A stretch of 64,000 nt of DNA, taken from positions 248,001 through 312,000 of the forward strand of contig NW_013547017.1 in the NCBI RefSeq assembly GCF_000711695.1, written 5' to 3'. The stretch comes from Tilletiaria anomala UBC 951 (lineage: Eukaryota > Basidiomycota > Exobasidiomycetes > Georgefischeriales > Tilletiariaceae). The position numbers and the translations under genes are program-made. Shown here in pieces: positions 2,570 to 63,398 of this stretch. Below the pieces are notes generated by a model that saw only the letters and a list, made by a program, of their open reading frames with translations, searched no databases and had not been told where the DNA came from. The first letter of the stretch is position 1. Each line of letters opens with the position of its first letter.

Positions 2570-3080
2570 ACAGCTGTCTCGCACACCATCTGCTGTTATG
2601 CGTGCTCTTGGATCATATCTTGTCGCCCGACCACCGCCTGTGCCAAATGCTGGTGGCCTCTTTTTACCTTCGCTTACTCGCCCACCACTGTGCCGACCGC
2701 AAGAAAGACCAATCGCTTTTGCATCAACGTTCAGAAGGGCATATATAGATGCAAGGTGGAAGCAACTATACATGTGGGCTACGGCGATGGAAGAGGATGA
2801 GTTGTTGACGGTGAGAACCCCCGGCGGAACGAGATGATGGAACGGCACAGCACTCGGCAGCAGTTGAGTGTGCCGACTGCACCAAGCACCTCAGCCCACT
2901 GGTGTTGCCTCATGAGTTCATCAGGCATCGCCCTCCTCTCTTTGATAAATTGATATCTGTCTGAACAGCTCTCAACACCTCCATCCCTTCAAAGACGACT
3001 TTCGCGAAGGGTACGCTTCATTGCGTGCGAATCGACACTGTCTGGAGCTCGCTAGCGCAAGTCAATTGTGCGTGTACGAA
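2570..3080. promoter_or_regulatory. Intergenic region upstream of NDUFB10
   Basis: No supported gene. Presumably contains the 3' end of the hypothetical gene and the promoter/5' leader of the complex I subunit; a pyrimidine-rich stretch (CTCTCAACACCTCCATCCC, about 2970-2990) lies about 95 bases before the start codon. Confidence 0.3.
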
Positions 3081-3742
3081 ATGGAAGCCAAGCACCCGTC
3101 TGCGGAGGAGTACTCCGGTGCGTGGCCATCTGCCTTCTTTTTTCATTAGACCATCGATTGGGACAGGCATGCAGACTAACCTTTGCAATTGTGCTGTTCA
3201 CAGAGATCATCGCGCGGCGCGAGGAGAAGATCAGGGAGGACTGGATCCGAACAATGCAGGCGCGGATAGTCAGAGAGGAGCTGCAAAAGTGCCACAAGGC
3301 CGAAGGTGTCAACCACTACCAGGTCTGCCACGAGCTCGCGCAGACCTACCTGGACTTGCTCAAGGACGCAAAGGTGAGTCGAGCGCCTCTTTTTTCCTGA
3401 AGGGGAGCATCGACATGGATGAAGTAAGAGATACGTATGGAGCGGGGCAAAGTAGCAGCGCTGGAGGCCAGCGCATGGAAGGTTCGTGGGCTAAGGCTAA
3501 CTTTATGCTCAAGGTGGGAAAATGCTGGGCCACAAGCCTGAGCTTTTTCAGCCTGGATGCCTTCGCGATAGACAAGGTCGAAGTCGGTCATTCTTGGAAC
3601 ACCTTCGCTGTCTTTGGGATACATCGGTTACTTCTGCTGCGTCGCCGTTCTGAGAAGGTGTGACCCTGTTAGCCTTAGATTTTCGCTGACCAACAGCCCT
3701 ATCTGTCCACAGGTCAAGGGCTATCGAATCATTGACCAATAA
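3081..3742 (+). CDS. NADH:ubiquinone oxidoreductase subunit NDUFB10-like (PDSW, fungal 12 kDa subunit)
   Basis: Accessory subunit of mitochondrial complex I membrane arm. Model: exons 3081-3119ish (donor G|GTGCGT), 3204-3373, 3713-3742; protein of about 78 residues. Exon 2 carries the conserved core: REEKIREDWIRTMQARIVRE, then CHKAEGVNHYQVCHELAQTY, matching the family pattern of a basic helix followed by two spaced Cys that form the CHCH-like pair (C...C about 12 apart). Exon 3 gives VKGYRIIDQ and stop, matching the KGY-containing end of the fungal 12 kDa subunit. Length is close to the fungal family (about 80-95 aa). The first exon is short, and an upstream non-coding or extra 5' exon is possible. 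The intron of about 340 nt before exon 3 is unusually long for this window. No targeting peptide is seen, as usual for this subunit. Confidence 0.8.
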
Positions 3743-21309: not shown

Positions 21310-24300
21310 TCACGAAGGAAAGGGGATGCCGGATGGTGGGATTGGTATCCATCCTCGACCTTCCTGGTCTCGGGTGTTCTGCCAGATGATGTTCCCGATC
21401 CAGTTAAGCGTCACGTTGGGAATCTGAACAGACACGAACAGCAACAGCCCGCATGTGGCCGCCGCGGCGTCACAAGCAGCGCCTGCGAGGTAGTTGTACC
21501 GATCCCAGATTGGGAAATATCGCCTTCGGATGATGTACTCTGCAGGAAGTCCGAAGTCAGCAAACAGTTATAGCAGACGTGGGTCGGAGAACACTCACGA
21601 GCAATGAAATTGATGGCAACAAAAGCAGTCGTGTTTACAGGGTCGCCTGCCATTGCGAAGGGAACTCCGAATAGCATGAGAGGAACGTTGACGAACTTCC
21701 ATATGCGGCGTGGGTAGCGCCTATTCAGGTACCAGAACGGAATCGGGAGGAGCGCACCGGCGGCGAGCGCATAGGATAGACTGATGCGGTTGGCAGTACT
21801 GCTGAACAGCCGCCGCGGTCCTATCACTCCCCAGACGATGCTCGAAGAGTAGTAGAACCTTTGTCCTGGGCAAGTAAGCAAAGATGCCTGATTGTGGGAG
21901 CATAGGTCCGGGATCCGCGCAGTCATGAGCTCCTTTACGGCCAATAGAACCACATCTGCCCATAGCATCGCGCTTAGCTGGCATGCAAGGGAGAAGCGCG
22001 GCCCGATCTTCATGTAGTGCCCCATCTTGAGAGCTTGGGAGAAGGTTTGACCTGAGAGTGTGGACCCCACGACAAACGCTTTGAAGATCATATTGGGGAT
22101 TGCGCGACCGGGCAACGCATACCCGATGATAAACTCTCCAATCACGTTGACAACAGTTGTGACGAGAGCAGTCTGAGCGAGGAGGATAGTAACGGGAAGG
22201 AAGTAGACGCCGACAAGTGCGTAGCCGATGATGATGCCCCAGACCGGCAATCCGAGGTCATAGATTTTAACCGCAGCGACGACGAAGCCGAAGGATATGA
22301 CGATCATGACGCCATAGAGGTAGTCCGGAACATCCTTGTATCGACGCATTTGCCGCGCATGGACATCATCGATCTCAGCTGTGCCGGTTCTCAAATTCAT
22401 CCAAATAAAGTTCTGGAAGTTTAAGTAGGTGTGTACCAGGAGAGCGCCGGCAAGCGCGAGAGATGACCAGAAATCCAGGTAGGACGCAACCGTCAGATAG
22501 AGTGGAGAGTAATTCTCGTAGGCTTCTGGATCAAAATCTTGTCCTTTGAGGACCCGAGGAGCGTTGTACCTGTGGCCGAATTTGTCGGAGCTGCTAGGCC
22601 CGTTGAAAGGCAGATAACCGAAATTGAGAGCCTGCACCGCGAGGATACCATTAGCTTCTCAGCAAGAGTACTCCACAACACGCTGCTTACTCACATTTTT
22701 GAAGTAAAGGATCGTACCGATAAACACCCACATAATCAAATACCCTACGCCAAGGTTGGCACCTGCCCACCAAGGAGCTAGCGTCGGTGAAGCGAAATAA
22801 TTGAGCTGTGTGTAATCGAGAGTCACGGGGAATAGAGCCATTCCGTTTGTGAACCCGAAGATATGATTGACGGCGACGTTGTCTGAAGTGACGAGGTTGA
22901 AGGGAGAACATGAGTACGACGCCTTCTTCGCGCTCCAAGACAACCAACACAACTCACTCGGAGCGATCCAACAGATCCAGTTGAATGTGCTAAGTGCGGT
23001 GAACAAGAAAGACGGCACAATCTGCCAGACAAAGATTACGCCGAAAACGATCCAGAAGAACTTGAGGCGATTCATCCGGCCCCGCTCCGGTTCCGGCTCG
23101 GCATGGAGGACATTGATCATGAGCGAGATCTGCAGATTCTGCGGCCAGATCATCGACGCGGGCTTGACGAGGAAGCGTCGTCCAAGACCGGCGAGACCGG
23201 CGCCGAAGAGAATCGAGCTAAACGTGAAGAGGATAGCGAAGGAATATGGTGTACGCAGGTTCCAGAACACCGGCAGGTCGAGTGCGGATAGCGAGAACAT
23301 GGGGTAAGTGGCCTGTGTGTTGAGGCTGACCATCACCATCTGAGCGATCAACGAATGCTCCTTCATGCTCCAGTACCCCGGGTTGAGCTGGACGGCATGC
23401 CCACCGAAGAGCTTGGGGAAGTGGAACGTCCATTTGGGTGTCCAATGCGCAAGTGTTCTGCCAACAGGCCAGGCGGCCAGGACAGCCACTGCAGTGGTGA
23501 TGGTGGGGGATGGATAGCGGAAGGTCCAGTAAGCGTTGGCGCCGACAGACACAGTGATGAGGAAGAGGGCTATGATGAGAACCCGCAATGTCAAGGCGTG
23601 CTCATCGTAGTCGTCGAGATGCGAAACCGAACATCGAACCTCGATGTAATCTGAGTCCTCTTGTTCGTCGCCCTCCACAGGTCCTTGACTATCCATATCG
23701 ACCGCATGTCTGCGTGTACTGTTTGGCTCTGGTATCGGCTGCGGATCTTGGATCACATCGGCGAGGGCCGGCCGCTTCCTCCTTCGCGCACCACCACGCA
23801 AGCCTGGCAGAGGTTCCAAAGGGTTGCCGATGTTCTCTCGCTGCTTGCCAAGTGTCATGCTGGTGGGACCAGATGAGTTGACAGCATTGGTATGGGCCAC
23901 TTGTACCGCCATCTCGTACTGCGCAGCTTCGAACGCAACTTGGAAGGCATGATCGGCATGCGCTTGCCGTCCGAGCAAGGTCAGCCCGCGTTCATAGGCA
24001 GCGAAATTCGAGTTGCGGCGCTGGGCTTGTGCGGCGGCAAGAAGCTCTGCTGGGTGCAATTGGCTTGCCTGTATCTTGAAATAATCAGCCATGGAGCCAT
24101 TGTCCTTGCCTGAGCCAGTCGCTCCAAGGTTGATCGCATCTTTCACCAGAACAGTTCCCAAAGGCTTCTTTCGCTCTGACGCGGTGGAAGACCTGACTTC
24201 ATACGACTCGTCAAGCTCGACGGACGGACCCAGGCCCGCTAAGGTGGGAGTGTTACGGATCAGCACCGAGCGGCCGCCAAAGCAGATGGACGGTAGCATT

Positions 24301-61037: not shown

Positions 61038-62891
61038 CTTGGCTTGATACAAGAAGATTGCCCAGCAACCGAGCAGAGCAATGTGCTTGCCCTTGCGTAC
61101 AGATTCCGTGCCGCGATGTCGACCCGTTGAGAGAGGCCAATTTGTACGAGGGGTCCGATAAGCTTCCTAAGCTGGCTACGTCGTAACCGTGGTGGGCATG
61201 AACACCATCAGCAGGCTGCAAATAGCGAAGTGGTGACGTTGTGTCCGTCCGATACAGCCGATAGGCTTGACGCGTCTGAGCGGTGTTACGCTTGTACCCA
61301 TTGTGCCACTTGTAAATCCAGCTGTTGAGGAGAGGACGCGTCGAGTTGTTCTAGGATTCGGTGCAACAGCTGGACGCGGGGCGCGTTCCTGGGCGCGGTC
61401 TTGGAAACAACACGAGCATCGCAATTGTCCCCGTGGTGCGCGCCTCCTTGCAGCCTCTTGCTCGCTAATAAAGGAGTGCCCCCTTGATCACTCTGACTCT
61501 CGCCAGAACTGTGCATGGTGGACTGCTTCACTGTTGCTGCTTCCCCCTGGGGTAGCTCCGTTATGCTTCTCTCGAAATGTAGACGGTCAGCTCGCGGCTC
61601 GTAGTCTGCCAACTCTCGCCACACAGCGAAAACTTGCGTGCAGGGTCAAGGGTTGCAAGCCACATCCTCTCCTCCCTCCCTCGTCCCCCTCCCCCTTTGA
61701 CCGCATGATACATACGATACAAAGTATCTCGCCTGTGTCCTTGCAGACCTGGTCCTTGTTCTGAAACAGCAGCCAAGAGAAGCAAATCCGAGGCGATATG
61801 CCCTCGAGCTGGACACTTTTGGACGTCCTGTTTACCAGATTGCGGCTCTCTGTGCCAATGTAGCCTGCAAGTCTATGGCGGGGATGAATCCATCTTGATG
61901 AGAGTCAATGAAGACTCTCCGCAGCGACGACTGTCCTTTTCACTGACATCGCCACGCCTATCGGGCTGCCCAGTGCCGGAACATTCGAAAGCAAGACGGC
62001 CGCTTCGACGCTGACTTCCTGTACGTCGTCGAATGTCGACAGTCCCACACAGCGCCGTTCGTTCTTCTTTTCAAGTTGCTCGTCGTTTTCCATGTTCGCC
62101 GCCACCGGCCACAGTGTCCCCGCAAATACATACACTGATGCGCAGAAATTCTTGCGGCAGCCTGATCGACTTTCGATTGTTCGTTGAAAACACCTGACCC
62201 CAGTCTGTCTGCACCAGTTGCCAAGCAGCAAGTATTGATGGCAAACAGTGATAGACAACAGCAACTGCCGCTTATACCACAGACAATCCCGTAGCTGACG
62301 AAGCGGAGACAGTGACACTACAGCGACAACTGTGGCTTATGGCCACTGTGTGGTTTCAGCCTTCAGGGACAAACACTCGGCGTAACATCTAAAGAGCGTC
62401 GCCTTGCTGGATAGCCCCTTCATCGCCCCCTCCCCCTCCCCCGTTCCCGCCTTCAGCACCAGGTGCTCTCCTGGATCGTCCGTCCGTTCAAGTTGATCTC
62501 ACCATCGAACCATCCACCATCGATCACCTTCACTTTTGCATGACCGGTGATACACACGACTTCGTCCTCGGCATCGTCTACCCATCGCGCGGCTACATAT
62601 ACACTTCATCACTACTCAGCGGCTTTCAAACTGTGTTCCTTTCAAGGGTAAGCATCATTCTGCTTGCACATCGGGGACCCTTCACAGTGTTTGCGAGCTT
62701 GACAGGGTGAGTAAGGCGTATACCGTTTGTGATGGAGTGTCTCTATTAGTTGTGCTTTTCTTATTGACGACTCCTCTATGTCTTCGAAACAGCTTTCTTT
62801 CTCGCATCACTCAGTCCGCTCGTTCATCATCATCACTCCAAGCCTGAATCGGATTAGCTTTCTCACAAACATCCCAGAGTCCTCGCTCAAG
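61038..62891. promoter_or_regulatory. Intergenic upstream of HyuB (-) and the peptide precursor (+)
   Basis: 1.85 kb without a supported gene and without HyuA motifs on the minus strand. Near the right end, a TATA-like CATATACAC (about 62596) and donor-like GTAAGC (62648) and GTGAGT (62707) suggest a spliced 5' leader for the precursor gene. Confidence 0.4.
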
Positions 62892-63398
62892 ATGAAGGCC
62901 GCCCCTCACCTGACGCTCGTACTCGCCGCCTGTCTTGTGTTGATGCTCGGCGCTGCGTCTGTCATCGCTGCTCCTAGCAAGTCCGCCACAGAGATTGGTC
63001 CTGACCACGGCGCCCCACCAGCCGGCCAAACTTTCGTAGGCAGCGGTCCGTCACCAGCTTGGAAGCGCGATCCTAGCCCTGAGCCAAAGTCGGCCAAGAA
63101 GAAGACCAAGGCGCACCATCATCACAAGGGGGCGCATAAGTCAAAGGGCAGTGACAAGAAGAAGGTCGAGCACAAGGCGGGAGAGAGAAAAACTACGCAG
63201 CCCGCTGCTCCGGCTTCAGACTATGGCTTTTGGGGAGGCGGGCCTAGTCCTTCGTGGAAGAAGCGAGAGGCGGACGACGCTGAGGAACAGGTGCCAACGG
63301 AGGACTTTGGCTTCGTGGGTGTTGGACTGAGCCAAGGAATCAAGCGTGACGAGGCCGAAGGCATGATCAAGCTCGTCAAGCGCGGCACAGTAGTCTGA
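62892..63398 (+). CDS. Kex2-processed secreted repeat-peptide precursor (KEP-type)
   Basis: 168-aa secreted preproprotein. A signal peptide (residues 1-26, LTLVLAACLVLMLGAASVIA) precedes three related cores, each followed by a dibasic Kex2 site. Core 1: TFVGSGPSPAW-KR (residues 47-59). Core 2: YGFWGGGPSPSW-KKR (111-125). Core 3: FGFVGVGLSQGI-KR (139-152). A fourth KR stands at 163-164, before GTVV. Segments after the sites begin DPSPEP, EADDAEE and DEAEG, like the dipeptidyl-aminopeptidase spacers (EA/DP) of yeast alpha-factor precursor. A Lys/His-rich linker (residues 66-102) separates core 1 from core 2. Start: ATG at 62892 gives the signal peptide at the very N-terminus; an upstream in-frame ATG (62778) is disfavoured because it buries it. 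Role unknown: signalling peptide, repellent/surface peptide, or RiPP precursor. No UstY-like tailoring gene is in the window. Confidence 0.85.
   Translation: MKAAPHLTLVLAACLVLMLGAASVIAAPSKSATEIGPDHGAPPAGQTFVGSGPSPAWKRDPSPEPKSAKKKTKAHHHHKGAHKSKGSDKKKVEHKAGERKTTQPAAPASDYGFWGGGPSPSWKKREADDAEEQVPTEDFGFVGVGLSQGIKRDEAEGMIKLVKRGTVV
63030..63347 (+). repeat. Three diverged peptide-core repeats within the precursor
   Basis: Cores at 63030-63062, 63222-63257 and 63306-63341 share F-V/W-G-x-G-P/L-S-P/Q-x-W/I followed by KR or KKR. Cores 1 and 2 are closest (GPSPxW); core 3 has drifted. Irregular spacing (192 then 84 bases) excludes a recent tandem duplication. Confidence 0.8.

What the first reader, a model, noticed from the sequence alone, without database searches (positions are those of the whole stretch)
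62892..63398. New Kex2-processed repeat peptide precursor with three F[VW]GxG-type cores
Seen: signal peptide, three variant cores of 11-12 residues each ending in Trp or Ile directly before KR/KKR, and acidic/Ala/Pro spacers (DPSPEP, EADDAEE, DEAEG) right after each site. Known: this is the design of alpha-factor-type and other Kex2-processed fungal precursors and of some RiPP precursors. Inference: the cell secretes small Gly/Pro/aromatic peptides, a signal, surface peptide or substrate for cyclisation. I know no family with the GxGPSPxW core; basidiomycete mating pheromones are lipopeptides of another type, so this would be a different system.
Basis: partly seen in the sequence, partly recalled or inferred. 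Interest (0 to 1): 0.85.

Follow-up and report, generated by a model that had tools for sequence, protein, structure and literature searches.

The report
Orphan secreted peptide precursor in fungus
A relative of the smut fungi has a gene for a secreted protein that looks built to be cut into two or three similar peptides; such precursors are common in fungi, but we found this one's peptide sequence nowhere else and its purpose is unknown.

Summary
Window 62892-63398 (+) encodes a 168-residue protein with an N-terminal signal-like stretch and four KR sites; three KR sites directly follow variants of one motif (TFVGSGPSPAW, YGFWGGGPSPSW, FGFVGVGLSQGI). The repeat beats 500 of 500 shuffles. Cores 1 and 2 share residues but not codons (7 of 8 non-Trp/Met matches differ in codon), so they are not a recent duplication. 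The source is Tilletiaria anomala UBC 951; its deposited 237-residue model buries the signal sequence behind an N-terminal extension. No relative was found in three protein searches, no second copy in its genome. The genome has a kexin, a DPP-IV/Ste13-type protease and S10 carboxypeptidases; no UstYa match (no positive control). Best reading: a Kex2-processed precursor of linear secreted peptides, probably a signal or surface peptide; a diverged orphan member of a known kind (KEPs; one survey lists 2,560 stand-alone ones). Correction: no KR/KK site lies directly before any core, so KR cutting alone gives fragments of about 31, 63, 25 and 10 residues, three of them ending in a core, not 11-12-mers.

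The parts
62892..63398 (+). ORF of the putative peptide precursor, 168 aa plus stop
   Evidence: identical over all 168 residues to the deposited protein P0001
62540..62647 (+). exon 1 of the deposited gene model (K437DRAFT_135202, 237 aa); probably 5' untranslated rather than coding
   Evidence: ATG at 62540 has T at -3, ATG at 62892 has A at -3; that exon 1 is untranslated is inference
62648..62792 (+). intron of the deposited gene model (GTAAGC...CAG), deduced
   Evidence: the only GT-AG pair in the ranges searched that rebuilds P0001 exactly
62892..62969 (+). signal-peptide-like N-terminus (residues 1-26)
   Evidence: hydropathy and -3/-1 rule; exact cleavage point inferred
63030..63068 (+). 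core 1 TFVGSGPSPAW followed by KR
63069..63086 (+). spacer DPSPEP: three X-Pro dipeptides (Ste13-type signature)
   Evidence: Ste13 preference XA/XP from PMC6339444
63087..63191 (+). Lys/His-rich linker (residues 66-100) with KK/RK pairs
63222..63266 (+). core 2 YGFWGGGPSPSW followed by KKR
63267..63287 (+). acidic spacer EADDAEE (one X-Ala dipeptide, then acidic)
63306..63347 (+). core 3 FGFVGVGLSQGI followed by KR (diverged copy)
63348..63395 (+). C-terminal tail DEAEGMIKLV-KR-GTVV; fourth KR without a core

Best explanation
The gene encodes a secreted precursor that enters the ER by its signal sequence and is cut in the late Golgi by the fungus's kexin (Kex2) after KR, with the basic residues then trimmed by a Kex1-type carboxypeptidase. 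This releases peptides whose C-termini are variants of one motif, F-x-G-x-G-P-S-P-x-W (two close copies, one diverged), plus spacer-derived pieces. A Ste13/DPP-IV-type enzyme could take DP, SP, EP and EA off the new N-termini but would stop before the cores; the N-terminal ends are therefore set by another protease, or the mature peptides are the longer fragments (about 31, 57-63 and 23-25 residues). The peptides are most likely linear and act outside the cell, as a hormone-like signal between cells of the same fungus (about 0.4) or as a wall/surface peptide like U. maydis repellent peptides (about 0.3). Shown: sequence, repeats, codon differences, single copy as far as searched, presence of the protease genes. 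Inferred: secretion, cleavage, linearity, function.
For: Signal-like N-terminus, four KR sites, three core motifs at KR. Repeat not chance (0 of 500 shuffles; core 3: 10 of 20,000). Cores 1 and 2 keep 8 non-Trp/Met residues (K and R of the site among them), of which 7 use different codons; pS about 1.0 against pN 0.28 over 13 codons. Kexin gene: Peptidase_S8 1.5e-43 plus P-domain 2.2e-15, closest solved structure named Kexin, 6.5e-131. DPP-IV N-domain match 1.1e-57, S10 carboxypeptidase matches. Ten flanking ORFs scanned: no modification enzyme among the seven with a Pfam match. No UstYa match. Third-position G+C of the ORF, 0.64, is like that of two neighbouring frames, 0.68 and 0.62.
Against: No relative in any other species found, so no cross-species conservation. 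Only two cores are close (7 of 11 identical); the third is 5 of 11 identical to each. Cores are not in tandem: 51 residues lie between KR1 and core 2. No N-terminal cleavage sites. No transcript or peptide data seen. The codon comparison covers 13 codons chosen for their similarity. UstYa absence lacks a positive control.
Confidence: 0.66

Rival explanations
1. An intact secreted or wall-bound Gly/Pro/Lys/His-rich protein that carries KR pairs by composition and is not cut into functional peptides; the GxGPSPxWK repeats are binding or structural motifs.
For: The protein is Lys-rich, so dibasic pairs are expected (10 KR/KK/RK positions); cores are far apart with a Lys/His-rich linker; no N-terminal core boundaries.
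Against: Three of four KR sites sit directly at the end of a core, and the Arg of the site is kept with different codons in all three (CGC, CGA, CGT); Pro-, Ala- or acidic residues follow three of the KR sites as in known Kex2 precursors.
Confidence: 0.2
2. A dikaritin-type RiPP precursor whose aromatic cores are cyclised by UstYa-like oxidases after Kex2 cleavage (as in ustiloxin).
For: Ustiloxin-type precursors share the two features signal peptide and repeats between Kex2 sites (PMC7329392, abstract; PMC6339444 section 10). That their cores sit before KR behind acidic spacers is recalled.
Against: No UstYa (PF11807) match in the genome at E 0.001 (the control genomes also gave none, so the absence is weak) and none among the ten flanking ORFs scanned. 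Only 103 of 1,680 basidiomycete KEPs (6.1%) in PMC7329392 have such neighbours.
Confidence: 0.05
3. A Kex2-cut secreted effector or antimicrobial peptide that acts on a plant or on competing microbes rather than on the fungus itself.
For: An association with plants is suggested for the species (PMC4056295, whole text read); the KEP survey proposes effector roles for some conserved KEPs (PMC6339444, abstract); the linker is cationic.
Against: No direct evidence; the cores themselves are neutral and Gly/Pro-rich, unlike cationic antimicrobial peptides (inference).
Confidence: 0.12

Closest known systems
KEPs, Kex2-processed repeat proteins of fungi (PMC6339444; PMC7329392)
   Same: Signal sequence, several KR sites, similar motifs each ending at KR, X-Pro/X-Ala dipeptides after two of the KR sites
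   Different: Only two close copies plus one diverged; copies not in tandem; long Lys/His-rich linker; deposited gene model hides the signal sequence
Ascomycete alpha-factor-type pheromone precursors
   Same: KR followed by X-A/X-P dipeptides and Gly/Pro/aromatic peptides before KR; two cores end in Pro-x-Trp, and a C-terminal PCW is conserved in Fusarium and other Sordariomycetes (passage of PMC6339444)
   Different: Ste13 trimming would not reach the cores; no Ste2 match in the genome (no positive control); basidiomycete sexual pheromones are a-type only (PMC6339444), and a Ste3-type receptor locus was found
Trichosporon oleaginosus alpha-like KEP (PMC6339444)
   Same: Basidiomycete, Gly-rich peptide ending in Pro-x-Trp, Ste13 signature
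   Different: Has two Cys; alignment to cores 1, 2, 3 is reached by 312, 295 and 599 of 2,000 permutations with Trp kept last: no sequence kinship shown
Cryptococcus Qsp1 quorum-sensing peptide (PMC7537855, PMC5959073; passages)
   Same: Basidiomycete; 11 residues; Gly/Pro-rich, Phe at position 2, C-terminal Trp; secreted as a pro-peptide
   Different: Matured outside the cell by Pqp1. Score to cores 1, 2, 3 reached by 655, 1,591 and 3,715 of 20,000 free permutations and by 4,532, 6,278 and 3,920 with Trp kept last: likeness of composition, no kinship shown
Ustilago maydis Rep1 repellent precursor
   Same: Smut lineage (recalled); Kex2-processed precursor of secreted peptides
   Different: 37-residue peptides, without Ste13 signature (PMC6339444); sequence not compared here

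Membership tests
KEP (Kex2-processed repeat protein) | ER signal peptide | tested here: met
   Met by hydropathy 2.92 and -3/-1 candidates in the 62892 ORF, not by SignalP, which was not available. In the deposited 237-aa model the stretch is internal, at residues 78-89
KEP (Kex2-processed repeat protein) | At least four fragments of two or more residues after in-silico KR/RR cutting (PMC6339444 pipeline) | tested here: met
   Four KR sites give five fragments: 31, 63, 25, 10 and 4 residues besides the basic residues
KEP (Kex2-processed repeat protein) | At least three similar repeats between Kex2 sites (3 fragments by Fimo in PMC6339444; 3 or more tandem repeats of 8+ aa in PMC7329392) | tested here: inconclusive
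   Three core motifs by score, but core 3 is 5 of 11 identical to each other core and the copies are not tandem; neither published pipeline was run
KEP (Kex2-processed repeat protein) | Kex2 protease in the genome | tested here: met
KEP (Kex2-processed repeat protein) | Actual cleavage at KR | not testable with these tools
   needs peptidomics
alpha-factor-type pheromone precursor | X-A/X-P dipeptides lead from KR directly to the mature peptide | tested here: not met
   DPSPEP and EA follow two KR sites but run into non-dipeptide sequence well before the next core; the third KR is followed by DEAE
alpha-factor-type pheromone precursor | Ste2-type receptor in the genome | tested here: inconclusive
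   No PF02116 match at E 1, no positive control
dikaritin RiPP | UstYa (DUF3328/PF11807) gene nearby | tested here: not met
   No match in the genome at E 0.001 (no positive control) and none among the ten flanking ORFs scanned

The most novel reading that the evidence does not exclude
A self-directed peptide hormone or quorum signal of a homothallic basidiomycete, made by the alpha-factor route (Kex2, Ste13-like and Kex1-like trimming) but unrelated in sequence to any known fungal pheromone, ending in P-x-W, and possibly re-imported by an oligopeptide transporter as Qsp1 is.
Probability: 0.15. Interest if true: 0.6.

Novelty: new member of a known kind. Interest (0 to 1): 0.32.

Why it matters
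If cut as predicted, it adds a new peptide motif to the secreted peptides of the smut lineage. It also shows how such genes can stay hidden: an upstream in-frame ATG in the deposited model buries the signal sequence, so secretome screens that start with a signal-peptide filter would probably pass over it (inference).

Tried and rejected
Paralogue in the genome: a degenerate DNA pattern for G-[PA]-x-P-x-W-K hit three places, with none for the reversed control. Two are cores 1 and 2; the third (C62:89476-89498, minus) lies in another frame of a 1,194-residue open frame (read there as RAVPSLEALE) and was rejected as chance. Protein searches of the genome with the whole ORF and with a 51-residue stretch (cores 2+3) found only the gene itself.

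A looser DNA pattern was mistyped by one base: it is out of frame, does not match the known cores, and its five hits mean nothing. A pattern for two close W-K-R blocks gave 26 places against 20 for the reversed control. I looked at 8 of the 26: the four fetched with the search and four picked by eye for an in-frame spacing. Three of the eight hold a frame with two WKR, of 53, 73 and 59 aa, without a signal-like start to my eye; rejected. The other 18 were not followed.

Pfam and solved-structure searches of the ORF gave only weak matches (best DUF1373, E 0.073, below its cut-off; best PDB match E 0.073). Qsp1 and the T. oleaginosus peptide were considered as relatives; permutations give no support. 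Searches for print: Kex2-processed+fungi+Tilletiaria 0 papers; GPSPSW, GPSPAW or the locus tag 0 papers; Kex2+Exobasidiomycetes+secreted 0 papers; Kex2-processed+Basidiomycota+peptide from 2020, 5 papers listed, of which only PMC7329392 was opened. The supplementary tables of the two KEP surveys could not be read, so I cannot say whether this gene is listed there; neither main text names Tilletiaria.

Full report
What it is. The ORF at 62892-63398 is real and reads as stated. A protein search identified the source as Tilletiaria anomala UBC 951, hypothetical protein K437DRAFT_135202 (237 aa), identical over the 168 residues. The deposited protein fits a model that begins at an upstream ATG (62540), splices out 62648-62792 and runs in frame into the ORF. 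In that model the most hydrophobic stretch (Kyte-Doolittle 2.92) lies at residues 78-89; the first 60 residues reach only 1.26. The ATG at 62892 has A at -3, that at 62540 has T, and a TATA-like stretch (TACATATA at 62594) could place the transcription start downstream of 62540. I infer that translation starts at 62892 and that exon 1 is untranslated. No transcript data were seen for this gene; the genome paper reports transcripts covering more than 75% of the length for 93% of gene models (PMC4056295, whole text read).

Anatomy. After the signal sequence come core 1 (TFVGSGPSPAW) and KR, DPSPEP, a Lys/His-rich linker, core 2 (YGFWGGGPSPSW) and KKR, EADDAEE..., core 3 (FGFVGVGLSQGI) and KR, DEAEGMIKLV, KR, GTVV. 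Cores 1 and 2 match at 7 of 11 residues; core 3 matches each at 5 of 11. The fourth KR has no core. The tests against chance are given in the observation check; they were made after the motif had been picked by eye.

Selection inside one gene. With no relatives to compare, the repeats themselves are the test. Over the 13 aligned codons of cores 1 and 2 (one K of KKR dropped), 8 non-Trp/Met residues agree and 7 of them use different codons; pS is about 1.0 and pN 0.28. One Ser is TCA in core 1 and AGT in core 2, which no single synonymous step links. For 2 against 3 and for 1 against 3, 5 of 7 shared residues differ in codon (pS 0.86 and 0.76, pN 0.36 and 0.43). So the copies are not a recent DNA duplication; either they are old and kept at protein level or the motif arose twice. 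Both point to a working peptide motif. Caveat: 13 codons, chosen because their proteins look alike.

Relatives. Three searches of 5.77 billion proteins gave only the gene itself: whole ORF (143 candidates, E up to 1), residues 104-160 (3 candidates, E up to 10), and a query of invented core variants (345 candidates, E up to 10). The method needs shared exact 5-residue words, so a distant relative can be missed, and no collection of fungal genomes was available for synteny. In its own 18.4 Mb assembly no second copy was found (one search's third hit is chance).

Machinery. A kexin gene is present: PF00082 1.5e-43 and PF01483 2.2e-15 in one frame, best solved match a chain named Kexin at 6.5e-131. 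A DPP-IV N-domain (Ste13/DPAP-type) gene lies on C59, and S10 carboxypeptidase matches are many (21 matched pieces; which is Kex1 was not determined). One STE3 locus was found (three pieces on C145), no STE2 and no UstYa; for the last two the control genomes rang nowhere, so absence is weak. Oligopeptide transporters are several (20 matched pieces), one of them inside the window at about 21.6-24.3 kb.

Neighbourhood. Ten flanking ORFs were scanned with Pfam, seven of the 14 listed in L006 and three from the window: RRS1, two pieces of a hydantoinase B/oxoprolinase, an alpha/beta hydrolase, SNAP, Rad21/Rec8, a protein kinase, and three without a match. The ORFs of L007 and most others of the window were not scanned. 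What was scanned does not look like a biosynthetic cluster.

What follows for mechanism. Kex2 would cut after KR and a carboxypeptidase would trim the basic residues. That gives fragments of about 31 residues (if the signal is cut after residue 26), 63 (57 if DP, SP and EP are removed), 25 (23 without EA), 10 and 4; the first three end in a core. KK pairs in the linker could shorten the second further. DPSPEP is three X-Pro dipeptides, a Ste13 signature in the sense of PMC6339444 (abstract, sections 6, 10, 15, 24 and passages seen), but the run ends long before core 2; so it resembles the alpha-factor layout without meeting it. A hormone-like signal is favoured over a surface peptide because that paper argues that Ste13 signatures mark candidate peptide hormones and notes that Rep1 and the cyclic toxins lack them; this rests on others' inference and is weak.

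Known kind. PMC7329392 (abstract, section 13, second part of section 6, and passages seen) reports 7,878 KEPs, with 2,560 stand-alone ones without homologues; basidiomycetes average 5.30 per strain. An orphan KEP-like gene in a basidiomycete is therefore expected. Both surveys filter on a signal peptide, and PMC7329392 asks for three or more tandem repeats; the deposited model would probably fail both (inference; their supplementary tables were not readable). Qsp1 of Cryptococcus (passages of PMC5959073 and PMC7537855) and the T. oleaginosus peptide look alike in composition (Gly/Pro, C-terminal Trp). With Trp kept last, permutations of Qsp1 score as well in 4,532, 6,278 and 3,920 of 20,000 cases against cores 1, 2, 3 (655, 1,591 and 3,715 with Trp free), and of the other peptide in 312, 295 and 599 of 2,000: no good evidence of kinship.

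Verdict. Real, single-copy as far as searched, probably Kex2-processed; an orphan and somewhat diverged member of a known kind, with a core motif found in no search here and an unknown role.

Noticed in passing
window 62540-62792: The deposited gene model (237 aa) adds 69 residues before the signal-like stretch through an upstream in-frame exon; the true start is probably 62892.
   Followed up: partly
window 22659-24299 (-): An OPT-family oligopeptide transporter gene (PF03169, 3e-53) lies about 39 kb from the precursor; one of several in the genome. No link shown.
   Followed up: partly
L005 107-2602 (C4:64606-67101): The kexin gene of T. anomala: S8 domain and first part of the P-domain; the rest of the gene is probably in the frame that follows (2603-3646, no Pfam match).
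   Followed up: partly
window 62778-62891: The open frame runs 38 codons upstream of 62892 to another ATG (62778), which lies inside the deduced intron of the deposited model.
   Followed up: no
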